39,488 nucleotides of DNA from Hyphomonadaceae bacterium (lineage in GTDB: Bacteria; Pseudomonadota; Alphaproteobacteria; Caulobacterales; Aquidulcibacteraceae). Shown one piece after another: positions 26,063-38,016 of the stretch. The notes beneath the pieces were generated by a model. The model saw nothing but the letters and a program-made list of their open reading frames with translations. It did no database searches and had not been told where the DNA came from. The stretch covers positions 1 through 39,488 of the forward strand of contig JACMMP010000050.1 of the NCBI GenBank assembly GCA_014378995.1, given 5' to 3'. Within the stretch, counting starts at the first letter, position 1, and every line of letters begins with the position of its first letter. Both the position numbers and the translations under genes were made by a program.

Positions 26063-26431
26063 TCTAGTTCCTCATTCTTGATGGTGCGGAACGCAGCTCA
26101 TGCCCACCCCAAGGGCGGTGACGGTCCCGACGGCCTAACCCCGGTAGCCAGTTATGGTTCCGAGCGACGCCGCGGGTTCCGCTAAAGGGAACGATGCGGA
26201 GTTTCGTCCTTCTCCCCTTGTGGGAGAAGGTGGCGCGAAGCGCCGGATGAGGGGCGCCGGCGCAAATGTTCCACGCTCGCGCTCACACCCCTCACCCAAA
26301 TTCGCGCCGAGAGCAAACAGAAGCGCTCGCGATCCCTCTCCCACAAGGGGAGAGGAGCGAAAGCAGCGCTTTCGATTAAGTGCATCGACGTCGGCCCAGC
26401 CGAACGTCGGCATTTCGCCGAAAACAGACGT
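26063..26431. other. Intergenic stretch with a palindromic repeat element
   Basis: About 370 bases without a supported gene. The middle 148 bases are a palindromic repeat element (listed separately). The remainder includes the promoter side of the lipoprotein gene; nothing else was recognised. Confidence 0.6.
26208..26355. repeat. RIME-like palindromic intergenic element
   Basis: The left end is a hairpin with 9-bp arms (CCTTCTCCC / GGGAGAAGG). The right end is a hairpin with 8-bp arms (CCTCTCCC / GGGGAGAGG region). The two ends are also inverted copies of each other. Inside are a GGCGC-GAA-GCGCC hairpin and inverted GATGAGGGG / CCCCTCACCC. This matches the general form of palindromic repeats widely found between genes in Rhizobiales and Caulobacterales. 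Confidence 0.75.
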
Positions 26432-26848
26432 TCAATCCTTGTCCCCTATTTGCTTTCCCATTGCCGCAAGCATGTCGTCTACGCGCTGATTTCCGGTCGC
26501 GGTAAAAGTTGGAAAATTGCCATCGCGTTTCGCATCATCGAGGTAATCTTCGCTCCGCCAAACAGTGTCCACGCGGATCATCTCCCAATGGAGGTCAAAG
26601 AACTCCTCCGTCAGGTCAAAATGCTCGAATGCCGGCCGAAGTGGTCCCTCAAGGATAAGAGTCTGAAAATGACCAAGGAACAGAAGCTTCTCTCTGAGGT
26701 CGAAGTCGCTTCTTGGTCCGCGGCTACCAATTTTCGCCGTCCAGATGAGGGGTGCAAGGACGAACTCCTGATCGCGCTGATCAAGAGAATTGGCACGCTC
26801 CCTCAGCGGCGGCTTTGCCGAAATTAGCCAGTGTTGTTCATATAACAT
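26432..26848 (-). CDS. Hypothetical protein (138 aa)
   Basis: Unrecognised soluble protein. The sequence looks like a real folded protein (LREKLLFLGHFQTLILEGPL, EFFDLHWEMIRVDTVWRSEDYLDDAKR) and is not Arg/Pro-biased like antisense artefacts of this genome. The C-terminus reads NQRVDDMLAAMGKQIGDKD. I chose the ATG at 26848 (MLYEQHW) because GAGG lies 9 nt upstream; in-frame starts exist up to 26920. The gene and its flanks are less GC-rich than the housekeeping part, which suggests an accessory origin. Confidence 0.6.
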   Translation of the reverse strand: MLYEQHWLISAKPPLRERANSLDQRDQEFVLAPLIWTAKIGSRGPRSDFDLREKLLFLGHFQTLILEGPLRPAFEHFDLTEEFFDLHWEMIRVDTVWRSEDYLDDAKRDGNFPTFTATGNQRVDDMLAAMGKQIGDKD

Positions 26849-28603: not shown

Positions 28604-31291
28604 TTAATGTAAGACGCCTTGCTTTAGCAGTTTTGTCAGCGCCACCTCGGCGTCCAGCGCTGGGAGCTCAAGCGTCAGATCAATACCCAATGCGCCCAGA
28701 TCTTTGACATCATCGTCGCTCAACGGCGCCTCCAGCGCCTTTGCTATGGCGACGAGTTCGCCCGCCACGCCGAGGCGCGCATCACCTGCCTCAAGAATTG
28801 CGAGCGCGATGAGCGCCAGTGCGAGCTCCGGCCCGCCTTTGACACGCTCAACCGCCCGATGCAGCGCGTCCATCGAATAGGCGCGGGCTTTTTCACGCTC
28901 CGCGCCCGGCACGCGCGCAAGTCCAGTGAGCGCGCGCACGGCATAACGCTCATCCGCGCCCGCCGCCTCAAGCGCCACGGTCAACGTACTTTGCGCTTGA
29001 TGCGCGTCGCCGACTTTGAGGTGAAGCGCCCCGAGCTTCCAATGCAACATGGCGCGATGTTGATTGTTATCGACAAGCGCTTCGAGTTCGAGCGCCGAGC
29101 GGTATGCGGCGAAGGCTTCGGCCGAATTGTCTTCGCGTTCCGCTAATTCGCCGGTGCACACACGCGTCCACATCAAGCCGCCCGTGAACCCCAGATGTTG
29201 GCAATGCGCCTCCCCCATCGCCAGATGACGACGCGCGGCGGCGTAATGCTTGCGATGCAGTTCAAGCCACGCCATCGAGAGATGGGTGTAAAAGAGACCA
29301 AGCTCGTCGCGCCGGCGCAGGGCCGCCGCACGCGCGTAAAAGCGTGCGGCGTCCTCCAACGCGCCACGCGCATGCGCGATATTGCCGAGCGCGTGCTCTG
29401 CGTGAGCGCGAACGCCGGGGGCGACGTTGCTTTGCGCCAACACGCCTTCGGCAAGCCGTGCGACCTCAGCGAAACGCGCTAAATGCACGAGACAATTGGC
29501 GCGCAGAGCATCGAAGGCGCCCCGCAACGGCGCCGTCGTCGGCGCGATTGAGAAAACCGCATCGGCCTCCGAGAACATCCCGGCGAATGCGTAAAGATAA
29601 AATGTCCGCTCCGCCGCACCGACGTCGAGGCTCGCATTCGCTGCGGTGCGCCACGCTGCGACTATATTGAGATGCTCAAGGCGCAATCGCTCGGCGATCC
29701 GCGGTTGATCGGGGCCCAGAGCCGCACGAAAATAATCCTCCGCCCGCGTCAGATAGTGGCGTGCATGCAGGCGATAGAGTTCGTCTCGACCGGCCGCCTC
29801 GATCGCGGCCATTTTCTCAAGAGCAAAGTCACGCACCAGGGGATGTAAAGCAAAGCGCGACGCGACGCCCCGTTCGAGGAGACTTTTGCGTTCAAGACAC
29901 CGAAGCGCACTGATGTCCACGTCGGCGACGGCGAACGCGGCCGCTTCATCGAAGCTCGCTGGAAAGACGGCAAGCCGCGCCAGCGACGCCTGCAGAACCG
30001 GATCGAGTAAGCGCCACGATCCTTCGAACGCATCGCGAAGCCCGCTCGCGCCGGCATCGGACAATATGCCTAGATCCCCCTTTAGACGCGCCGCGATGTC
30101 GCCAAGCGAAAGCACGGAGACCCATTGTGCGGTCAAATGCAGTCCTAAGGGCGCGCCGCCGACCGCGGCGTAGATGCTTTTAAAGGCGGCCTCATCGGCC
30201 GGCGCGAGCGCAAAATGCGGATCAATGGTGCGCGCAGATTGCGCAAACAGCATGGCCGCGCCACTCCTCGAAAACTCGCCACCGTCGGCGAAATCGAGTC
30301 CGCCAAGTTTGAACACGCTTTCACCGACCCACCCGAAGACTTCACGGCTCGTCACCAGGATCGACAGCCCAGGCGCGGCTGCGAGGAGGCTCGTCAGAAC
30401 ACCAGCCTCATCCTTCACCGCATCGGCGTTATCGATGACAAGAAGCGCCTCGCGCGCCGCAAAGTATTCGATGAGAATTGCAAGGTCGGATCGATCGAAC
30501 CTGCGCGGCAAGCGCAAGCCGTCGACGATCGTCGCCGCGAGTTCCGCCGAGAAACGGGGATCGCGGTTCAAGGTGACGATCTGCACTTCGCGAAGCGCGG
30601 AGATGGCGCTCGCGACCTCCAGCGCCAGACGTGTCTTGCCAAGACCGCCCATGCCGAGAATTGTCACCAGACGAACGCCGTCGTTGAGCATCCGGGTCAA
30701 ATCGCCGATCTCGCGGTCACGGCCGAAGATGGGCGACGTTTTCGAAGGAAGGCGCGGCGTCTGACGCGTTACGTTGCGCAGCGGTGGAAAATCGCCGTCG
30801 CCTTGATCTGCCTTAAGACTGAAAACGCGTTGCGGTTGATCGATGCCGCGAAAATAAGTGTTTCCGAGATCCACCAGGCTTGCAGCCTCCGGCAGTCCGA
30901 AGGTGGCGACCGCCAGCGCTGAGGCCACAACCTGCCCGCCCCATGCGGACGACGCAAAGCGCGCCGCCCGATTGATCGCCACCCGATCAAGCTCGCCATC
31001 CATTGCCGGCGCGGCGGCATGGACGCCGATGCGCACGGCAAGGCCGCCCACGTCGGACCAGTTTTCACGTGCGAACGCTTGTTGGATGGCGATGGCGCAC
31101 GCCAAAGGATTGCCGTTTATGAAGACAGCGAAAACCCCATCGCCGGCGCGGTCCTGGACGTTGCCGCCATGCGCGGCGACAAAGGAATCGACCAATTGAT
31201 CGTGACGGCGCAGCGCCCGACGCATGCCTTGCGGGCTCTTTTCCCAGCGGGCGACGCTGCCGTCGATATCTGTAAAGAGATAGCCAATCAT
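28604..31291 (-). CDS. Class III nucleotide cyclase-STAND ATPase-TPR signalling protein
   Basis: 895-aa multidomain protein. Residues 1-160 form a class III adenylate/guanylate cyclase domain: first metal Asp D8 (LFTDIDGSVARWE), second D51 (AGDGVFAVF), and transition-state Asn/Arg N107 and R111 in AINRAARFASSAWGGQ, so it looks catalytically complete. Residues 185-450 are a STAND/NB-ARC ATPase with P-loop GMGGLGKT (213-220), hhGRxxE-like lead FGRDREIGDLTRML, Walker B LLVIDNAD and sensor ILVTSREVFGW. The remaining half is TPR-like helices (AEHALGNIAHARGALEDAARFYARAA). No DNA-binding domain is seen. It follows the methyltransferase by 92 bp on the same strand, so it may be the last gene of the cluster. 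Output may be cAMP or another cyclic nucleotide controlled by ATP-dependent oligomerisation. Confidence 0.88.
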   Translation of the reverse strand: MIGYLFTDIDGSVARWEKSPQGMRRALRRHDQLVDSFVAAHGGNVQDRAGDGVFAVFINGNPLACAIAIQQAFARENWSDVGGLAVRIGVHAAAPAMDGELDRVAINRAARFASSAWGGQVVASALAVATFGLPEAASLVDLGNTYFRGIDQPQRVFSLKADQGDGDFPPLRNVTRQTPRLPSKTSPIFGRDREIGDLTRMLNDGVRLVTILGMGGLGKTRLALEVASAISALREVQIVTLNRDPRFSAELAATIVDGLRLPRRFDRSDLAILIEYFAAREALLVIDNADAVKDEAGVLTSLLAAAPGLSILVTSREVFGWVGESVFKLGGLDFADGGEFSRSGAAMLFAQSARTIDPHFALAPADEAAFKSIYAAVGGAPLGLHLTAQWVSVLSLGDIAARLKGDLGILSDAGASGLRDAFEGSWRLLDPVLQASLARLAVFPASFDEAAAFAVADVDISALRCLERKSLLERGVASRFALHPLVRDFALEKMAAIEAAGRDELYRLHARHYLTRAEDYFRAALGPDQPRIAERLRLEHLNIVAAWRTAANASLDVGAAERTFYLYAFAGMFSEADAVFSIAPTTAPLRGAFDALRANCLVHLARFAEVARLAEGVLAQSNVAPGVRAHAEHALGNIAHARGALEDAARFYARAAALRRRDELGLFYTHLSMAWLELHRKHYAAARRHLAMGEAHCQHLGFTGGLMWTRVCTGELAEREDNSAEAFAAYRSALELEALVDNNQHRAMLHWKLGALHLKVGDAHQAQSTLTVALEAAGADERYAVRALTGLARVPGAEREKARAYSMDALHRAVERVKGGPELALALIALAILEAGDARLGVAGELVAIAKALEAPLSDDDVKDLGALGIDLTLELPALDAEVALTKLLKQGVLH

Positions 31292-31383: not shown

Positions 31384-32187
31384 CTAGGGCGTAACGCCCT
31401 CCAGTTCGTCATGCAAGAACCGCTCTAAAAGCAGGATACGGGCGCTTGAGGGTTGCGGCCGGTAAAGCGGCGGCACGTAAAGCGTAGAGGCCTGATCAAC
31501 ACGTGCGCGATAAAGATCATGCAGCGCGATGCGCTCGATGCGCGCGGGGTTTGTGGGCAGCGTCGCTGCAACGTACACGACAACTTCGTGATCTGACGGA
31601 TAGCTTTCTTCGAGCACGCAGGCCAACGCCTTCAATGCTGCGGGACGCGACTGAAATTCGGTAAAGGCGCCGTCGCCCAGAACCCCTATCTGCCAAAGCA
31701 CGAGAGCCGCGCAGGCGTCGACTGGGCGCTGGTTGATGAAAAAATCGCGCGCCTCATAAGTCTGCATGCCCCAAGCGCCGGGATCGACGCCCAAATCGGC
31801 GGCCAGCGCGTCTTCCGCGGAGACGCCAGGCAACATGATGGCGCTAAACCCGAGCGCGCGTGCGCGGCGGATCGCTTCGTGCGAGGGCGTCACGAATATT
31901 CCAGGATGCCCGTAGAATGCAGCGCAGACCCGCTTGCCCGCGTGCAGCGCCGCCAGAATTTTCTCAACCATCGCAAGGTAGGCGCGCGGACGCGACCCTG
32001 CCTGCTCGTAGAGCGGCTCTAAAGGTTCGATGTTTGCGTTGAGCGTCTGCAGCCAAGCGTCAACCAAAGGATCGCCCATCAAACTGAAAACGATCTCCGC
32101 CTCCTTGATGGCGTTCAGCGCTTCGATGGTGATTTGACCGGCAAGCCCAATGCCAGTGCCGACGACAATGAGCGAAGCGTGGGTCAT
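31384..32187 (-). CDS. Borosin-type alpha-N-methyltransferase (tetrapyrrole-methylase fold), SonM-like
   Basis: SAM-dependent methyltransferase of 267 aa in the tetrapyrrole (corrin/porphyrin) methylase superfamily. Fold markers: SLIVVGTGIGLAGQIT at the N-terminus, the SAM loop AFYGHPGIFVTP (residues 89-101) and LPGVSAEDALAADLG. Key for function is Y60-x5-R66-x3-Y70 (LYEQAGSRPRAYLAMVEKIL), the same spacing as the catalytic Tyr/Arg/Tyr of fungal OphMA (Y66, R72, Y76). This separates it from cobalamin and sirohaem enzymes, and no cobalamin genes are near. It should methylate backbone amides of a separate precursor, here the 75-aa gene just upstream. The start at 32187 (MTHASL) is set by the fold; a longer frame upstream lacks similarity. 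Confidence 0.88.
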   Translation of the reverse strand: MTHASLIVVGTGIGLAGQITIEALNAIKEAEIVFSLMGDPLVDAWLQTLNANIEPLEPLYEQAGSRPRAYLAMVEKILAALHAGKRVCAAFYGHPGIFVTPSHEAIRRARALGFSAIMLPGVSAEDALAADLGVDPGAWGMQTYEARDFFINQRPVDACAALVLWQIGVLGDGAFTEFQSRPAALKALACVLEESYPSDHEVVVYVAATLPTNPARIERIALHDLYRARVDQASTLYVPPLYRPQPSSARILLLERFLHDELEGVTP

Positions 32188-32228
32188 GACATCCGTTCCG
32201 TTGCTGTGAAAAGCTGCTTCAAACATCC

Positions 32229-32250
32229 GGGGCGACTTTGAAGCCGCCCC
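32229..32250 (-). promoter_or_regulatory. Hairpin between precursor and methyltransferase, possible attenuator
   Basis: In the 76-bp gap after the precursor stop, GGGGCG and CGCCCC form a strong stem (extendable by one flanking C-G pair and an inner CTT/AAG). A weak T-rich stretch (GCTTTTC) follows about 15 nt later on the minus strand. Partial termination or mRNA 3'-end protection here would give more precursor than enzyme. Confidence 0.45.
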
Positions 32251-32263
32251 GTCTGTCCTCGGA

Positions 32264-32491
32264 TCAAACCGCTGCGAAGGCGGCGGGAACGGTGATGATC
32301 TTGGGCGGCAATGACGCTGCATTCACGCCTGCAGCCCTGCACGCCGCGCCATAGTCTCCCGAAGCGATCGCGGCGCGATCGAAGTTGGAGAGATTGCTGA
32401 CGCTCAACGCGGCGGCGGGGTCGGCGCTAAATTGCGCGCGCGCGCTTGGATGTTCGCCAAGCCGCACCAGGAAATCCAAAGCCGTCTTCAT
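32264..32491 (-). CDS. Borosin precursor peptide with LigA-like binding domain, SonA-like
   Basis: 75-aa protein read as a split-borosin precursor. Residues 1-52 resemble the small helical LigA-like domain used as the borosin-binding domain: ALDFLVRLGEHPSARAQFSA, DPAAALSVSNLSNFDRAAIASGDYGAA. After a short linker the C-terminal tail (about residues 58-75) is hydrophobic and Pro-containing, SLPPKIITVPAAFAAV, a good core-like peptide for backbone N-methylation at the Ile/Val positions. The ATG overlaps the flavoenzyme stop (ATGA), with AAAGG 8 nt upstream. It is followed by the methyltransferase gene, the usual partner order in split systems. Which residues are methylated, and whether the tail is cut off, cannot be read from sequence. 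Confidence 0.8.
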   Translation of the reverse strand: MKTALDFLVRLGEHPSARAQFSADPAAALSVSNLSNFDRAAIASGDYGAACRAAGVNAASLPPKIITVPAAFAAV

Positions 32492-33990
32492 GATTGTACC
32501 TTTCGGGTTGAAGCGCCGCCATCCGGCGCGAGTGGAGAACGGGAAGCGAGTGCTTGGCTTTTGAAGGAAGCCATCCAAGCCGAAGCCCGTTCAATCGTGT
32601 CTTCGGCATTGTCGAGGGCGCTCTCGCTCCAGCCCGCGTGCTCAGCCAAGAGCTCACCACAGATGAAGAGAGGCAAATCCGGATTGGGCTGAGCCAGACG
32701 CTCGCGAACCTCCGATGAGCGCACGCCGGCGCGCCAATGATGCCAGCCCGCGCGCCAGCTTGCATAAACCCCCGCGCACGGCGCCGGAATGTCGCCATAA
32801 AGCCGCGTGAGCGCGCGCTGCGCCGCGCAAAGCAAGGCCTTTGGCGCGAGAGCTGAAGAAGGCGCCCCTTCGACGTATCGCCGCCAGACGCGCGCATTGT
32901 CGCCGTCGGCGAACACGCCGAGCATGACCCGGCCTTCATTCTCAAAGTAGTTTTGCTGCAGCGGCAGGTCGGTGAAGACAGCGCTCACCTCGCCGGCATT
33001 TTTCGCAAACCCGCGCGCGCGCCACCAGGGCGCATTGTACGCCAGAAAGAGTTTGAACGCCGGCACATCGACGATAGCGCCAAGGTCGCGGCGAAAGCGG
33101 CTTCCAGCGATGTCTTCGGCGATTGCCAAATCGGCGACGCCGTGGCGCGGCAGAGCCAAGATCACAACGTCGGCTTCCAACGCGCATGCGCCGGCCGGCG
33201 TCTTGAACACGAGACGTAGACCGGCCGGCGCACGCGTGATCGCCGCGAGCTCGTAATGGGTGCGTACGTCTACGCCTGCGCGGACGCCATCTTCCAAGAC
33301 GCTCCGGCAAAACGCCTCGGCGCCGTTCACGAAGCGAAAGAAACGCTGTCCGGGCGCGCCTTCCCAAGCGGCGGTGAGCAACGTGTCGAGCGCATTGGCC
33401 GCGCCAAAATTCGACGTGCAACCATGCGTGGCGCGCGCGCGGTAAATCGCATCCGCAGGCCAATGGCGCCGCAAAACTTCATCTATTGTGCAGCGCCACA
33501 AATACCGATCACCAAGTTTCAATTGGCTTAGGCTATCGAGACACGCGCGCTTCGGCGGCTGCGCAAAATAATCCGGCGCCAACGCCGCCAAAGTCGCCGC
33601 AAGCATGGCCTGACCGGTTGCGCCGGCGCCGGCGTTCAACCAGCGGTCGCGCGCGAATACGCCATCGCTCTTGAACGCAACGGGCGCGAGGTCGCAGCTT
33701 AGGTCGCGCGCGAGACGCAATATTCGTGGGTGTCGGCTGGAGACGAAGGCCGCCCCGAGTTCAAGCGGCCTTAAGCCCGCAAGCGCAACCGAAACCATCC
33801 GCCCGCCGGAGCGGCCGGACTTCTCATAAAGCGCGACTTCAGATTTTGGGAACCGTCGCTTCATCTCCCGCGCGCACACCGCGCCTGTCGCTCCTGCGCC
33901 AATAATTGCAATGCGCCCGCTTTTGCCTTGGTCCAACGCCGAGCTCTTCAAGCAGGCGCGTGCGCTTTTAGGAAATGAGCCGGCCTGCAC
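32488..33990 (-). CDS. FAD-dependent amine-oxidase-like enzyme, candidate borosin tailoring enzyme
   Basis: 500-aa flavoprotein of the amine oxidase/renalase-like group. The dinucleotide motif IAIIGAGATG is at residues 27-36, with the ribose-binding Glu E56 (ALYEKSGRSGGRM) and the second motif RSGGRM after it. ELGAAFVSSRHPRIL and the C-terminal FICGELLAEHAGWSESALDNAEDTI match the FAD cap and isoalloxazine-contact segments of this family. The start is GTG at 33990, with GGAGG 8 nt upstream. Its TGA overlaps the precursor ATG by 4 bp, so it is translationally coupled to the borosin precursor. A role in oxidising the peptide is inferred from position only. Confidence 0.82.
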   Translation of the reverse strand: MQAGSFPKSARACLKSSALDQGKSGRIAIIGAGATGAVCAREMKRRFPKSEVALYEKSGRSGGRMVSVALAGLRPLELGAAFVSSRHPRILRLARDLSCDLAPVAFKSDGVFARDRWLNAGAGATGQAMLAATLAALAPDYFAQPPKRACLDSLSQLKLGDRYLWRCTIDEVLRRHWPADAIYRARATHGCTSNFGAANALDTLLTAAWEGAPGQRFFRFVNGAEAFCRSVLEDGVRAGVDVRTHYELAAITRAPAGLRLVFKTPAGACALEADVVILALPRHGVADLAIAEDIAGSRFRRDLGAIVDVPAFKLFLAYNAPWWRARGFAKNAGEVSAVFTDLPLQQNYFENEGRVMLGVFADGDNARVWRRYVEGAPSSALAPKALLCAAQRALTRLYGDIPAPCAGVYASWRAGWHHWRAGVRSSEVRERLAQPNPDLPLFICGELLAEHAGWSESALDNAEDTIERASAWMASFKSQALASRSPLAPDGGASTRKVQS

Positions 33991-34141: not shown

Positions 34142-35680
34142 TCATCGCGGCGCCCCGGACGCCGCCGCCATCAACCGCACGGCCAAGCGCGCAATGGCCC
34201 GCCGCGCCGCATCCCCCATGGTAAGACGCGTATTCGACAAAAACGGTTTGGCCATCGGCGCGCTGAAAGCGCCCGCATCCGCGCCCGTGAAGCATAATCG
34301 GATGACGGCCTGAGACCGCGTCGAAGCGCCTAACCGCTCTCGGGCCGTGTCAATATGGTGGCGCACGGTCGCTTCTTTGACCCGCAAAAGTTCAGCGATT
34401 TCCCAATCCTGCTTACCGGCTCCAACAAGTTCAAGACAGGCAATCTGGCGCTTCGTGAGTGTAGCTCTGAGCTCCCAGGTCCTCTCCCACGCCTGCGGGG
34501 TCAGCAATTGCCTCATGCTTTGCGCGAACGCGAACGACAATAGATCGAGCGCTGCGCGCATTGACGTGTCGGTGTGGATCGCACGCGGCGCGGCCATGAT
34601 CAGCGCCGCGGTGGATCCATCCATCATAGAGATCGGCGCCACATGGCAATCCTCATCATTCCCCTGGCGGATTCTCTCGACGTTGGCCTTGTCGTGCAGG
34701 GACAGCCGCACGTCCCTATTCAACGCGCTCCATGTAACCGGCTCGTCCGATCTGCCGATACATTTCAAAAGCAATTGACCGCGTAAGTCCTCGCGCCAAT
34801 GAGGCGGCGGCGTGACAATGGACTCAAAGACACCTTCTCGAAAGCCATCGACAAATCTACCGGCGCTATCGCATCTCAATATTGAAACATGGCTGAAACC
34901 AAGACGGCGCGACACGGGTACGACGATATGAGCAAGTTCGTTCATCGACGACACAGCGCCGGCGCGTTCGACAGCGCGCGCAGCCACCGAGGTCAATTCC
35001 CCGCGCGTCCAATCGGGGTCGATCACCTCTAAATCCTTGCGAAGATCTTGAAGATCCAAAGCCTTCAGCCGCGCGCCTTGCTTGAAGCGCCGCACCTCAA
35101 GCATTGTTGGGCGCGCAGGGTCGGCGCCGGCTTCGCTTATCCTTGGATGAAACTTGGCGATGGCGCCACGCCCAGTCGGCAGCGGCGCCCAGCTTTTCAA
35201 CTCAGAGTTTATGCCACGTTCGTATCGAACAAGCGGCGCCAATGTCGGAGGTCTAAAATAGCACCGACCATATTCCATCAACAGGTCGACCTCACGCTTC
35301 AGCCGCTCCTGAAATGGCAACGCCAGTTCAGCATTTGCCTGCTCTACGTAGATCGCGCGCCGAAGAACCTCGCGCCAGCTTGCATTTACGTTGCGTCTGG
35401 CGAACTCGGCCTCGAGAACAGCCACAATAGGTATATCGAGCTCTTCAGCCGTTCGCACTTCGTCGAGTATGAGGTCGGACTGAATTGAGGCGTTTGAGAT
35501 CACGACAATGAACGCCCGAACCTTCGCGATTTGCTTATGTATGGTCTCAAACAGCGACCGCTTTTCACCGACCTCCTTGGCCGCCGGCGACACGAATGAA
35601 GTATAATGAGATAGATAAGTGTTGATGCGCGCGCCCAGTGCTGCGTCGGCGCGCCGATAGGAGATGAAAATCGATTTCAT
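34142..35680 (-). CDS. TIR domain-LuxR-type regulator fusion
   Basis: 512-aa protein with an unusual architecture. Residues 1-130 are a TIR domain: SIFISYRRADAALGARINTYL, IAKVRAFIVVISNAS, and SDLILDEVRTAEEL with E74 at the position of the catalytic Glu of NAD-cleaving TIRs. A middle region (about 225-400) resembles the autoinducer-binding fold of LuxR proteins (MNELAHIVVPVSRRLGFSHVSI, DEPVTWSALNRDVRLS). Residues 408-464 are a LuxR helix-turn-helix (LTKRQIACLELVGAGKQDWE, RVKEATVRHHIDTARERLGA). The ATG overlaps the stop of the upstream 204-aa gene (ATGA). It lies 151 bp upstream of the borosin-linked flavoenzyme, same strand, and is the best candidate for its regulator. Ligand unknown; no LuxI-like synthase is in the window. 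Confidence 0.85.
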   Translation of the reverse strand: MKSIFISYRRADAALGARINTYLSHYTSFVSPAAKEVGEKRSLFETIHKQIAKVRAFIVVISNASIQSDLILDEVRTAEELDIPIVAVLEAEFARRNVNASWREVLRRAIYVEQANAELALPFQERLKREVDLLMEYGRCYFRPPTLAPLVRYERGINSELKSWAPLPTGRGAIAKFHPRISEAGADPARPTMLEVRRFKQGARLKALDLQDLRKDLEVIDPDWTRGELTSVAARAVERAGAVSSMNELAHIVVPVSRRLGFSHVSILRCDSAGRFVDGFREGVFESIVTPPPHWREDLRGQLLLKCIGRSDEPVTWSALNRDVRLSLHDKANVERIRQGNDEDCHVAPISMMDGSTAALIMAAPRAIHTDTSMRAALDLLSFAFAQSMRQLLTPQAWERTWELRATLTKRQIACLELVGAGKQDWEIAELLRVKEATVRHHIDTARERLGASTRSQAVIRLCFTGADAGAFSAPMAKPFLSNTRLTMGDAARRAIARLAVRLMAAASGAPR

Positions 35681-36291
35681 GCATCGGCCTCGTCGGCGGG
35701 CGAGGTTTTTGCAGGCTCCCCGTTCACAGCAAGGCCGTGACGTACGCCATAATCTTCATAATAAGTCTGCATCAAACGATCGAGCGTCGGCGTGCCGCAG
35801 ATCGGAATGTTGTTGGTGCGCAGCGGATTTTCAGCGACAAGTCGATGGGCGATCATGGCGCGCACGAGGCGCCTTGCTCTGCCCGCGAACGTTGCTTCGT
35901 CGGCGATCTCGCCGGTCCTGCCGGCCATGATTTTCCAGCGTTTGGCAAGACGGCGGCAGGTCAGTTTCTGACGCGGCTCTTCAAGATCGAACGCGCTTGC
36001 GCCAATTGCGCTCAACCAGATTTCCGATATCGCCGCCAGATTTTGCTGATCCAACAGAATGGCCAGATCTCGATCTCGTTTGCTGTCCGGAAAATGCTGA
36101 ACGTAAAGGGGCCCGATGGCGCTGCGAACCAAGAGACACCAATTGTCAGCCGCCGTGACATGCACCGCATTCATGCGGATCTTTGCAAGCATGTCGGGAC
36201 CAAGAACTGCGGGTTCGGGCGGCGCAGAGATCGGCGTGCGTGGCGCGCCAAGCACGACGTCCGTGTCCTTATCGGTTGGTCCTTCAGACAT
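35677..36291 (-). CDS. Uncharacterised protein translationally coupled to the TIR-LuxR regulator
   Basis: Unrecognised soluble 204-aa protein. The N-terminal 35 residues are disordered-looking and Pro/Asp-rich. The rest is mostly helical (DRDLAILLDQQNLAAISEIW, KLTCRRLAKRWKIMAG, TFAGRARRLVRAMIAHRLVA), with basic helices that could form a winged-helix or regulator-type fold, not proven. Its TGA overlaps the TIR-LuxR ATG (ATGA), indicating joint production, and AAGGG precedes the ATG by 5 nt. It is probably the first gene of the minus-strand array; a partner or modulator of the TIR-LuxR protein is the simplest reading. Confidence 0.75.
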   Translation of the reverse strand: MSEGPTDKDTDVVLGAPRTPISAPPEPAVLGPDMLAKIRMNAVHVTAADNWCLLVRSAIGPLYVQHFPDSKRDRDLAILLDQQNLAAISEIWLSAIGASAFDLEEPRQKLTCRRLAKRWKIMAGRTGEIADEATFAGRARRLVRAMIAHRLVAENPLRTNNIPICGTPTLDRLMQTYYEDYGVRHGLAVNGEPAKTSPADEADA

Positions 36292-37038
36292 CGCGCCCTT
36301 TCACGATTAAGAACACCGCCTCCATTAGGCAGATCACATCGGCGAAACGCGCGCTAGACCGTCTGGGTCATGCAACAATTTGTTACGTGCGCCCGCCCTC
36401 GACCCCCGGCACATCGCAAAGCGCGCCAAGCACCGAGTAACGCAGCAAATTCAAGCATCTCGCACAACAATCGGGACGTGGCGGCGCAGCGCGGCGATAA
36501 TTGGCTGCAACCGCGGCCAACGCGTTCGCCGCCAAGTGATCGACGAGTATTCCGATGACGCCGAACCCCGCGCGCCGACCTTGCGGCTCGGGCGCAATCG
36601 ATTGACCCGTTCATCCTGACGCTGCATCGCGCCGAGCGCCGCCATCCGTCCGTTTCCATTTGTCTACGCACCGCTCCTGTTCGTGCGTGGGCCGACCGCG
36701 CAAATTTGCAAAGGCGCCGACATCAGCGCCGATCCGAGCGGGCCCCGGACGCGGGCTGCGCGCGGCGGCCATGATTTAAATTCGAGTTCTGAGGGCGCGC
36801 ACCCATTGAGAGGGCGCCAGTCCCCTCACGTTGAAACGACACGATCGCAGGCTCTGAACCGTGCGCGCTGAGCGTCGCCAGACGCCATCACCGAGCCGCG
36901 TGGCGGCGCTAGACGACCGCTAAGGGTCTCTCACCTCGCGAACGTTCACGCCAAAGCGCGGCAATTGGAACGGTCTCACTTGCCAAGCTTACGCCCGCGA
37001 TGCAGGCCTGGGCCCGAGCAAGAGTCCGCGAGACGACC
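36292..37038. other. Large divergent intergenic region
   Basis: About 750 bases between the start of the minus-strand array and the plus-strand FecR gene, without a convincing gene. Short open frames are Arg/Pro-rich and lack ribosome sites. An AACAATTTGTT near-palindrome is at 36374-36384. No sigma factor gene precedes fecR, although FecI normally would. The region likely holds both promoters and possibly decayed sequence. Confidence 0.5.
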
Positions 37039-38016
37039 ATGAGCAGCGCAGAGGAAAAGCGGATCGGATTGGAGGCCGCCGGTTGGGTGGTCAAATTCGA
37101 TGGCGTCGATTTCGACGCCGGCGACGTGCGTGCGTTTCGCCGCTGGATGGCGAAATCCGATGCGCATCGCGCCGCCTTTGAGAGCGCCAGCCGCACCTGG
37201 AACCAACTCGACATTCTCTCGAAGCTACAGACGTTCGAAGCGACAGAGGCGCAGCGGATGCGGACGCCCACCCGCCGCCAAGCAATGGCCGGCGCCTCTG
37301 CGATCGGCGTCGGCGCGATTGCGCTCTCGGTCATCGCTCTCTCGAATACTACGGCGGAAGCGTTCGAGACCGGGATTGGCGAGCAAAGAGAAGTCGCGCT
37401 CTCCGATGGATCGCGAGTGGTCTTGAACGCGGACTCTCGGCTTGAAGCCAACATCTCGCAAGACCGACGCGAGGCGCGGCTGGTGTCGGGAGAAGCGCTT
37501 TTTGCCGTGGCCCCCGGCGCTGCGATCTTTCGAATTGAAACACCGCGCGGCGACATCGAAATCGCAGAGGGCGACGTCCTCGTCAAAGTGCTGACAGACG
37601 GGGCGCGCATAACGCTATTGTCCAATGGCGCGCGCGCCTCGCGCCGAACCTGGCTCCGCGACCCCGCGCCGGTGTTGGCCTCGGCGAGCAGCGAAATTCT
37701 CATTGACGCGCAAAACCTCAGCGTCAACGTGGCGAGCGACGCAACACGCGCGCGGCGCCTCCTGTGGCGCGAAGGTAAACTTGCCTTCGATGACACGCCG
37801 ATTCGTGAAGCCCTCGACGATGTATCGCGCCAAACCGGCGCGAGGTTCGTATTGAAGGGCGCCGCGATCGAGACCCTGCGCGTCGCCGGTCTCATCGACG
37901 CGCGTGACCTCGACGCCTTCACAGATTTGCTCCGCCAGAACCTTGGCCTCCTCGTGGTCGGGCGCAGCGACGGCGTCTTCGAAATCTCGCAAGCCCCCGC
38001 GCAGGTCGACGGCTGA
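37039..38016 (+). CDS. FecR-type transmembrane anti-sigma factor/signal transducer
   Basis: Inner-membrane regulator of 325 aa that relays a signal from a TonB-dependent receptor to an ECF sigma factor. The N-terminal cytosolic domain is of DUF4880 type (AAGWVVKFDGVDFDAGDVRAFRRWMAKSDAHRAAFE). One hydrophobic helix follows near residues 85-105 (AMAGASAIGVGAIALSVIAL). The periplasmic FecR domain is clear (GEQREVALSDGSRVVLNADS, RLVSGEALFAVAP, RIETPRGDIEIAEGDVLVKV). The C-terminal part is STN-like (FDDTPIREALDDVSRQTGARF). The ATG at 37039 fits DUF4880 better than an in-frame ATG 39 bp upstream. It precedes the STN TonB receptor by 100 bp, the expected partner; the expected fecI-like gene is missing from the upstream side. 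Confidence 0.9.
   Translation: MSSAEEKRIGLEAAGWVVKFDGVDFDAGDVRAFRRWMAKSDAHRAAFESASRTWNQLDILSKLQTFEATEAQRMRTPTRRQAMAGASAIGVGAIALSVIALSNTTAEAFETGIGEQREVALSDGSRVVLNADSRLEANISQDRREARLVSGEALFAVAPGAAIFRIETPRGDIEIAEGDVLVKVLTDGARITLLSNGARASRRTWLRDPAPVLASASSEILIDAQNLSVNVASDATRARRLLWREGKLAFDDTPIREALDDVSRQTGARFVLKGAAIETLRVAGLIDARDLDAFTDLLRQNLGLLVVGRSDGVFEISQAPAQVDG

What the first reader, a model, noticed from the sequence alone, without database searches (positions are those of the whole stretch)
31384..33990. Probable split borosin RiPP cluster: precursor, backbone N-methyltransferase and flavoenzyme
The methylase has the tetrapyrrole-methylase fold with Y60/R66/Y70 at the OphMA catalytic spacing. It is preceded by a 75-aa gene with a LigA-like domain plus a hydrophobic Pro-containing tail. 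An FAD amine-oxidase-like gene overlaps the precursor by 4 bp. Split borosins of the SonM/SonA kind have this precursor/enzyme pair; a coupled flavoenzyme would add a second tailoring step. Neighbouring TIR-LuxR and cyclase-STAND genes make this layout unlike cobalamin biosynthesis.
Basis: partly seen in the sequence, partly recalled or inferred. Interest (0 to 1): 0.9.

Follow-up and report, generated by a model that had tools for sequence, protein, structure and literature searches.

The report
Borosin operon with flavoenzyme and cyclase
A bacterial operon that very probably makes a backbone-methylated peptide (a split borosin) also carries, as constant partners in its genus, a flavin oxidase and a cyclic-nucleotide cyclase with a peptide-repeat sensor, and other sensor enzymes of that repeat type sit beside most of the borosin gene pairs examined in other bacteria, which suggests these peptides are signals.

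Summary
The 267-aa methylase is a SonM/OphMA-type backbone N-methyltransferase (SonM E 2e-59; cobalamin families far below cut-off). The 75-aa gene is a SonA homologue: profile match to SonA E 2e-11, predicted five-helix borosin-binding domain plus a hydrophobic Pro-containing tail. The flavoenzyme link is strongly supported: in the genus, methylase, flavoenzyme and cyclase-STAND-TPR gene occur in the same 11 of 30 genomes; the flavoenzyme lies within 3.1 kb of all 12 methylase loci, and in one locus the precursor is read in frame behind it. Outside the genus, borosin pairs lie beside a TPR-GGDEF diguanylate cyclase (67 of 80 loci; 12 of 16 in a second, partly overlapping sample, 3 more beside TPR kinases). 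I read this as a split borosin with a coupled oxidase, tied to a second-messenger sensor, perhaps as its peptide ligand. Chemistry and signalling are untested; three key borosin papers could not be read.

The parts
31384..32187 (-). M: split-borosin alpha-N-methyltransferase (267 aa), Y60/R66/Y70/Y92 present
32264..32491 (-). A: borosin precursor (75 aa), five-helix borosin-binding domain (residues 2-54) plus tail
32267..32311 (-). putative core region LPPKIITVPAAFAAV (residues 61-75); extent inferred by analogy with SonA
   Evidence: boundary is inference
32488..33990 (-). F: FAD amine-oxidase / L-amino-acid-oxidase-like flavoenzyme (up to 500 aa)
28604..31291 (-). AC: class III nucleotide cyclase (about 1-165) - STAND NTPase (about 188-480) - TPR (about 600-850), 92 bp downstream of M; the window protein alone stays below the Pfam cut-offs, the domains rest on the family profile and on relative L114
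34142..35680 (-). TIR-LuxR regulator upstream of F; a TIR homologue is found in one other locus (L109)
35677..36291 (-). 204-aa protein of unknown family, 4-bp overlap with the TIR-LuxR gene; homologue in the same place in L109, a further family member in L110
34018..34073 (.). inverted repeat, 15-nt arms (87% complementary), 26-nt loop, between TIR-LuxR and F; possible regulatory site or terminator

Best explanation
This is a bacterial split-borosin operon of an extended kind: F-A-M-AC. The precursor A docks on the methyltransferase M through its N-terminal five-helix domain, and M puts methyl groups from SAM on backbone amides of the hydrophobic C-terminal tail (inferred from SonM/SonA; not shown here). 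The flavoenzyme F, encoded just ahead of A, makes a second, oxidative change on the same peptide or on its released form (inferred from linkage, co-occurrence and one in-frame F-A ORF; the chemistry is unknown). The cyclase-STAND-TPR protein is the signalling arm: its TPR part senses something, STAND ATP binding switches it, and the class III cyclase makes a cyclic nucleotide that a Crp-type regulator, encoded next to it in several loci, reads (inferred). The likeliest sense of this pairing is that peptide and sensor belong to one circuit, either with the peptide as ligand of the TPR part or with the sensor controlling peptide production.
For: M. A: the profile of A plus 41 relatives finds SonA chains as its best PDB hits at 1.8e-11; AF2 model has helices 2-13, 15-23, 25-30, 36-44, 47-54 and a loose tail; Foldseek top hit SonA 9ch7_H, TM 0.82 over the target, prob 1.00, then OphMA clasp and LigAB (no E-value below 0.09). 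Module: M in 11 of 30 genus genomes (E<1e-60; other genus genomes show at most TP-methylase hits of E 2e-5 or weaker), F in the same 11 (E<1e-150), AC in the same 11 (E<=1e-30), none of the three at these thresholds in the other 19; 1/C(30,11)=1.8e-8 if genomes were independent. F 230-3028 bp from M in 12 of 12 M loci, AC nearby in 11 of 12. F, M and AC distances agree: Mantel r 0.94-0.96 on 11 loci, 0.78-0.85 on 8 dereplicated loci. F-A in one 600-aa ORF in L111. A Crp-type gene 6 bp from, overlapping by 4 bp, or 3 bp from AC in L110, L117 and L120 (L117 and L120 scanned, L110's is Crp-like by its ORF cluster, not itself scanned). Cyclase residues D8, D51, N107, R111 invariant in 11 of 11; best PDB hit of that part Ma1120 cyclase 1.6e-20, of the STAND-TPR part AfsR 9e-17.
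Against: No methylation, oxidation or nucleotide product is shown. F belongs to a family that also acts on free amino acids (LAAO, VioA), so it might not touch the peptide. F relatives outside the genus (E<=1e-90, six stretches L138-L143) have no M, AC or precursor found beside them, and two of those genomes (G329, G234) hold an M elsewhere; 0 of 80 borosin loci elsewhere carry F in the DNA fetched. L109 (G008) lacks AC in its 20-kb stretch; AC genes without M beside them exist in G004, G007, G008 and G027. The window's AC alone reaches no Pfam cut-off. The F-A ORF is a single case in a draft genome. In L120 the short gene in A's place has no recognisable binding domain, and in L117 no intact one was found. 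Genus co-occurrence is not corrected for phylogeny.
Confidence: 0.72

Rival explanations
1. M and A make an ordinary split borosin; F, AC and Crp are a separate amino-acid-oxidase and regulatory set that only shares the neighbourhood.
For: F's nearest solved relatives are L-amino-acid oxidases, and the six F relatives outside the genus that were looked at stand without borosin genes.
Against: Same 11 of 30 genomes for M, F and AC; F and A ORFs as listed overlap in 9 of 11 loci with a separate A, by 4 to 134 bp (in L113 and L118 partly because the longest start was taken); one in-frame F-A ORF; gene order varies (F-A-M-AC or F-A-AC-M) while membership hardly does.
Confidence: 0.15
2. The sensor enzymes beside borosin genes (AC-STAND-TPR here, TPR-GGDEF or TPR-kinase elsewhere) only control expression of the cluster in response to some other signal; the peptide is an ordinary secreted metabolite.
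For: STAND-TPR regulators such as AfsR (the closest solved relative of that part) control metabolite clusters (recalled); LuxR/PAS-LuxR and Crp genes lie beside several loci.
Against: The output of most of these partners is a diffusible second messenger and not DNA binding; core distances follow TPR distances beyond M and GGDEF in 37 loci, though not after dereplication.
Confidence: 0.45
3. A defence or conflict island: STAND, TIR and cyclase genes sense phage and the borosin is an effector.
For: Weak STAND-type match and a TIR domain, CHAT-domain neighbour in L118.
Against: No PADLOC model matches M, A, TIR-LuxR, AC or the 204-aa protein at E 0.001; F has only a weak hit, to a desaturase entry. 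The TIR gene is not a constant member.
Confidence: 0.07
4. M is a cobalamin/siroheme pathway methylase and A an unrelated small gene.
For: Shared TP-methylase fold.
Against: NCBIfam scores of 14-55 bits against cut-offs of 163-525; SonM, OphMA and MroMA come first by more than 37 orders of magnitude in E-value; precursor profile hits SonA.
Confidence: 0.01

Closest known systems
SonM/SonA split (type IV) borosin of Shewanella oneidensis (PMC8429565)
   Same: Separate methyltransferase of about 265 aa and precursor of about 75 aa with a five-helix binding domain; the four residues Y58, R67, Y71, Y93 of SonM are kept
   Different: Loop between the first Tyr and the Arg three residues shorter than in SonM (same as OphMA) in all 12 genus members; a flavoenzyme and a cyclase-STAND-TPR gene in the same operon; different core sequence
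OphMA-type fused borosins (omphalotin)
   Same: Methyltransferase domain homologous over residues 4-246; Y-R-Y spacing identical; the precursor's helical domain matches the OphMA clasp
   Different: Precursor not fused to the methyltransferase; in one relative (L111) it is read in frame with the flavoenzyme instead
Bacterial L-amino-acid oxidases (8jt7, 8t8a, 8jhe) and VioA
   Same: The F profile matches 8jt7, 8t8a and 8jhe along the whole chain (E 2e-101 to 3e-98); an invariant Lys at position 313 lies in the aligned region
   Different: Tied to a borosin precursor; below the VioA equivalog cut-off (87 of 600 bits); substrate unknown
Class III cyclases such as Ma1120; STAND-TPR regulators AfsR and MalT
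   Same: Cyclase part and STAND-TPR part of the family profile match these
   Different: All three parts in one protein, no LuxR-type DNA-binding end found, linked to borosin genes

Membership tests
Split (type IV) borosin | Stand-alone methyltransferase homologous to SonM/OphMA rather than cobalamin methylases | tested here: met
Split (type IV) borosin | Active-site residues SonM Y58, R67, Y71, Y93 | tested here: met
   Y60, R66, Y70, Y92 aligned; invariant in 12 of 12 genus members; OphMA spacing
Split (type IV) borosin | Separately encoded adjacent precursor of about 75 aa | tested here: met
Split (type IV) borosin | Five-helix borosin-binding domain homologous to SonA 1-53 | tested here: met
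   sequence profile 1.8e-11; model and fold match (Foldseek E only 0.09)
Split (type IV) borosin | Alpha-N-methylation of the core by the methyltransferase | not testable with these tools
   needs co-expression and mass spectrometry
Cobalamin/siroheme TP-methylases | Score above the curated NCBIfam cut-off | tested here: not met
   12 NCBIfam families matched, all far below cut-off
L-amino-acid oxidase / VioA | Flavin amine oxidase domain above Pfam cut-off | tested here: met
   PF01593 75.6 bits against 19.8
L-amino-acid oxidase / VioA | VioA equivalog cut-off | tested here: not met
   86.9 of 600 bits
Class III nucleotide cyclase | Homology of the N-terminal part to class III cyclases | tested here: met
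   family profile to Ma1120 1.6e-20; PF00211 above cut-off in relative L114; the window protein alone has no PF00211 hit and a LipJ hit far below cut-off
Class III nucleotide cyclase | Two metal-binding Asp and the Asn/Arg pair | tested here: met
   D8, D51, N107, R111 invariant in 11 of 11; role of each residue recalled
Peptide-receptor TPR signalling (RRNPP-like in logic) | TPR part binds the linked peptide | tested here: inconclusive
   core-TPR partial correlation present in 37 loci, absent in 13 dereplicated loci
Anti-phage defence systems | Match to a PADLOC model | tested here: not met
   only a weak hit of F to a desaturase entry

The most novel reading that the evidence does not exclude
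Bacterial split borosins are a widespread class of peptide signals: the N-methylated core is the ligand of a TPR sensor encoded next to it, and the sensor turns on a second messenger (c-di-GMP by TPR-GGDEF, a kinase cascade by TPR-HisKA, or a cyclic mononucleotide by cyclase-STAND-TPR). In the window's genus the signal is further oxidised by a dedicated flavoenzyme.
Probability: 0.35. Interest if true: 0.92.

Novelty: new variant of a known kind. Interest (0 to 1): 0.76.

Why it matters
When split borosins were described, no such pathway had been tied to a final natural product (PMC8429565, Discussion). The finding gives two concrete handles: a second tailoring enzyme genetically tied to the precursor, and a constant TPR-sensor second-messenger partner in this genus and, in another form, in most borosin loci examined elsewhere. 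If the peptide is the ligand, the function of bacterial borosins becomes directly testable, and backbone-methylated peptides would join the known peptide signals.

Tried and rejected
Cobalamin or siroheme methylase: rejected. Defence island: PADLOC gave nothing useful. TIR-LuxR as a core member: rejected, a TIR homologue occurs in one other of the 12 loci. F as a general borosin partner: rejected, 0 of 80 loci outside the genus carry it in the DNA fetched, and the six F relatives looked at outside the genus have no M nearby (a seventh, G310, was not looked at). Lack of the LAAO carboxylate-binding Arg as a sign of a peptide substrate: considered and dropped, because the closest solved LAAOs carry the same GGRL-type motif as most F proteins. 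Weak AC-profile hits in 7 of the 80 loci were not AC genes: Pfam showed GGDEF proteins with TPR in six and a TPR kinase in L024; weak AC hits in L144 and L145 were TPR-GAF kinases. First count of TPR-GGDEF loci (56 of 80) came from a greedy gene caller that picked antisense ORFs; replaced by an HMM over all ORFs of at least 250 aa (67 of 80). Core-TPR co-variation: present in 37 loci and in 34 main-clade loci, lost in 13 dereplicated loci, so used as a hint only. Four AC copies without M: two (L123, L124) have Crp genes beside them, none showed M, F or a precursor. Structure of F, AC or the F-A ORF was not predicted; the second structure job was not used.
Full report
What is there. On the minus strand the window carries, in order of transcription, a 204-aa protein of unknown family (36291-35677), a TIR-LuxR protein (35680-34142), an FAD amine-oxidase-like enzyme F (33990-32488), a 75-aa protein A (32491-32264), a 267-aa methylase M (32187-31384) and an 895-aa protein AC (31291-28604). 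Gaps are F-A minus 4 bp (ATGA), A-M 76 bp, M-AC 92 bp, so F-A-M-AC can be one operon.

The methylase. Pfam places M in TP_methylase (4e-24). Twelve NCBIfam families, mostly of cobalamin and siroheme enzymes, match at 14-55 bits, far below their cut-offs of 163-525. Among solved structures SonM comes first (2e-59), then dbOphMA and OphMA (2e-51 to 5e-47) and MroMA (2e-43), with a precorrin-2 methylase at 9e-6. The residues that PMC8429565 mutated in SonM (Y58, R67, Y71, Y93; sections 6, 7, 9 and 16 read) align with Y60, R66, Y70, Y92, all invariant in 12 methylases of the genus. The distances 60-66-70 equal those of OphMA Y66-R72-Y76 (OphMA numbering set by the mutants named); SonM has three more residues between the first Tyr and the Arg.

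The precursor. Alone, A matches LigA at 1.6e-4, below the Pfam cut-off, the OphMA clasp at E 0.2, and in NCBIfam the IniB N-terminal domain at 4e-6 and a NHLP-related RiPP peptide family at 0.0098, both below cut-off. A profile of A with 41 small proteins from borosin loci elsewhere (42 rows, A5; I used 41 of the 63 HMM hits of at most 130 aa listed) finds SonA chains as its best PDB hits at 1.8e-11. The model of A has five helices in residues 2-54 and a disordered tail (mean pLDDT 78, pTM 0.55); SonA, the OphMA clasp and LigAB are the fold matches (SonA TM 0.82 over the target, prob 1.00, but Foldseek E 0.09). An HMM built only from nine precursors of the window's genus finds a small ORF within 500 bp of M in 51 of 80 loci outside the genus; of its 68 hits of at most 160 aa, 54 lie there, against 1230 of all 7958 such small ORFs. 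Tails in the genus fall mainly into two groups: PPKIITVPAAFAAV-like (window, L109, L110, L118) and PLCFLLGLTRSSKSE-like (L112, L113, L114, L116, L119); L115, L111 and L120 have other tails, and the tail of L120 carries a PKIV motif twice.

The flavoenzyme. F is an L-amino-acid-oxidase-like enzyme; a profile of 13 F proteins matches solved LAAOs along the whole chain at about 1e-101. In the genus, M is found in 11 of 30 genomes, F (E<1e-150) in the same 11 (4 other genomes, and a third place in G003, show only N-terminal fragments of about 80-120 positions at 1e-19 to 5e-11) and AC (E<=1e-30) in the same 11. There are 12 M loci (G004 has two). F lies 230 to 3028 bp from M in all 12. A thirteenth F lies with a precursor and part of AC on a 6.3-kb contig of G003 (L116). 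In L111 the F reading frame runs on through a binding domain and tail, 600 aa in all: one case in a draft genome, yet the kind of fusion expected if F and A work on each other. Precursors were found as separate ORFs in 9 of the 12 M loci by the HMM, inside the F ORF in L111, as a short ORF without a recognisable domain in L120, and not intact in L117. L111 and L115 were found by an HMM they were not part of.

The cyclase-STAND-TPR gene. AC is present in 11 of 12 M loci; L109 lacks it in its 20-kb stretch, and its genome has an AC on another contig. The window's AC alone reaches no Pfam cut-off; relative L114 does for the cyclase, AAA and TPR models. In the family profile the N-terminal part matches class III cyclases (Ma1120, 1.6e-20), and the rest AfsR (9e-17) and MalT (2e-6); D8, D51, N107 and R111 are invariant in 11 of 11. 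Crp/FNR-type genes lie in the fetched stretches of several M loci (seven such genes from L112, L113, L114, L117, L118 (two) and L120 scanned; all hit the cyclic-nucleotide domain, one of the L118 pair below its cut-off). In L110, L117 and L120 such a gene is 6 bp from, overlapping by 4 bp, or 3 bp from AC. Gene order is F-A-M-(Crp)-AC in some loci and F-A-AC-M in others. F, M and AC distances agree closely (Mantel r 0.94-0.96; 0.78-0.85 with 8 loci after removing near-duplicates). The genus tree is not known to me, so the figure of 1.8e-8 overstates the evidence.

Outside the genus. A scan of genome contigs with M gave 160 relatives, of which the best 80 were kept, largely Dyella, Rhodanobacter, Luteibacter and kin. 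None carries F or AC in the DNA fetched, up to 8 kb each side. In 67 of 80 a protein of one TPR-GGDEF family lies within 3 kb of M; all 75 such proteins taken from these 67 loci hit GGDEF and 52 hit TPR_14, the commonest TPR model; a hydrophobic segment lies 60-200 residues before the GGEEF motif in 74 of 75, and an N-terminal one was seen in 35, so the TPR part may lie outside the cytoplasm. Of the other 13 loci, L024 and L046 have TPR histidine kinases, L097 a GGDEF protein 2960 bp away (E 1e-54) that my threshold left out, L050 TPR proteins, and in nine nothing of this kind was found; four of these nine (L042, L072, L090, L094) have M within about 2 kb of a contig end. In the complete genome of Dyella jiangningensis only 2 of 24 GGDEF hits are full-length TPR-GGDEF, and both sit next to an M-A pair (L081; L164). 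A phylum-wide draw of 398 genomes gave 14 others with M, 16 loci: 12 with the TPR-GGDEF family (one of them, L168, pointing away from M and without a TPR hit), 3 with TPR hybrid kinases (L165, L166, L169), and 1 (L180, a 1174-aa ORF) with neither found. In the class-wide draw 3 other genomes of 385 had M, 4 loci: 2 have a TPR-GAF kinase next door (L144, L145); in L146 none was found, and in L147 only a GGDEF-type ORF more than 4 kb away.

A test of the ligand idea. In 37 loci with one A, one M and one TPR-GGDEF gene, tail distances follow TPR distances beyond M (partial r 0.31, p 0.004) and beyond GGDEF (0.41, p 0.001), while tail and M do not correlate beyond TPR (0.00); the leader follows M beyond TPR (0.53, p 0.001). 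After dereplication to 13 loci the tail-TPR signal is lost (0.125, p 0.19) while leader-M stays (0.57, p 0.001) (first run). Leader and TPR also showed some correlation beyond M (0.36, p 0.003; 0.22, p 0.06). So this is a hint, no more.

Reading. M and A are a split borosin (about 0.95). F acts on the same peptide (about 0.65). AC and its counterparts elsewhere belong to the same functional unit (about 0.85); that they sense the peptide is about 0.35, that they control its production without sensing it about 0.45. Steps shown: gene identities, residues, predicted fold of A, linkage. Steps inferred: methylation, oxidation, second-messenger output, sensing.

Literature. Searches for split borosin, borosin with bacteria, with amine oxidase, with flavin plus oxidase, with GGDEF/diguanylate cyclase/tetratricopeptide (any two), SO1478/SO1479, RiPP with peptide signal or diguanylate cyclase, and borosin/omphalotin with quorum sensing or cyclic nucleotide listed no paper that I could recognise as reporting such an oxidase or cyclase beside borosins. 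Seen were these listings with the starts of abstracts, sections 6, 7, 9 and 16 and passages of PMC8429565, the outline and section 3 of PMC11395268, and passages of PMC11285071 and PMC13097080; supplements were not seen. Imani 2022, Cho 2022 and Lee 2024 are not held under the ids tried, so an earlier report there cannot be excluded.

Noticed in passing
window 37000-38016 (+): FecR-type anti-sigma regulator (FecR 6e-15, DUF4880 1e-9) upstream of the operon on the other strand.
   Followed up: no
window 26135-26489: Overlapping ORFs on both strands with PLVGEG / RGE-like peptides, which look like a palindromic intergenic repeat rather than genes (recalled pattern).
   Followed up: no
L121 10034-12790, L122 6315-9104, L123 9453-11816, L124 9329-12007: Cyclase-STAND-TPR genes without M, F or precursor found beside them; L121's is 59% identical to the window's, closer than any AC that lies beside an M. 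L123 and L124 have Crp-type genes nearby.
   Followed up: partly
L034 9110-11105: Five small precursor-like ORFs in a row after one borosin methyltransferase.
   Followed up: no
L063, L080, L085, L091: Order A - TPR-GGDEF - M, with the sensor gene between precursor and methyltransferase; among the 80 outside loci these hold the precursors that score best with the genus HMM.
   Followed up: partly
L117 10511-10767: Between M and F no intact precursor frame; pieces similar to L120's PKIV-containing short gene lie in different frames (single-contig genome, possibly sequencing error).
   Followed up: partly
L144 7524-9218, L145 7225-8883, L147 6498-9395, L180 5339-8863: Long borosin-methyltransferase ORFs of 552-1174 aa in other bacteria; L144 matches OphMA through its clasp (2e-71, residues 17-384), the precursor HMM hits inside L145 and L147, and L144 and L145 are followed by TPR-GAF histidine kinases.
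   Followed up: partly
L138-L143: Distant F relatives in other families without borosin genes found nearby; their neighbours were not identified.
   Followed up: no
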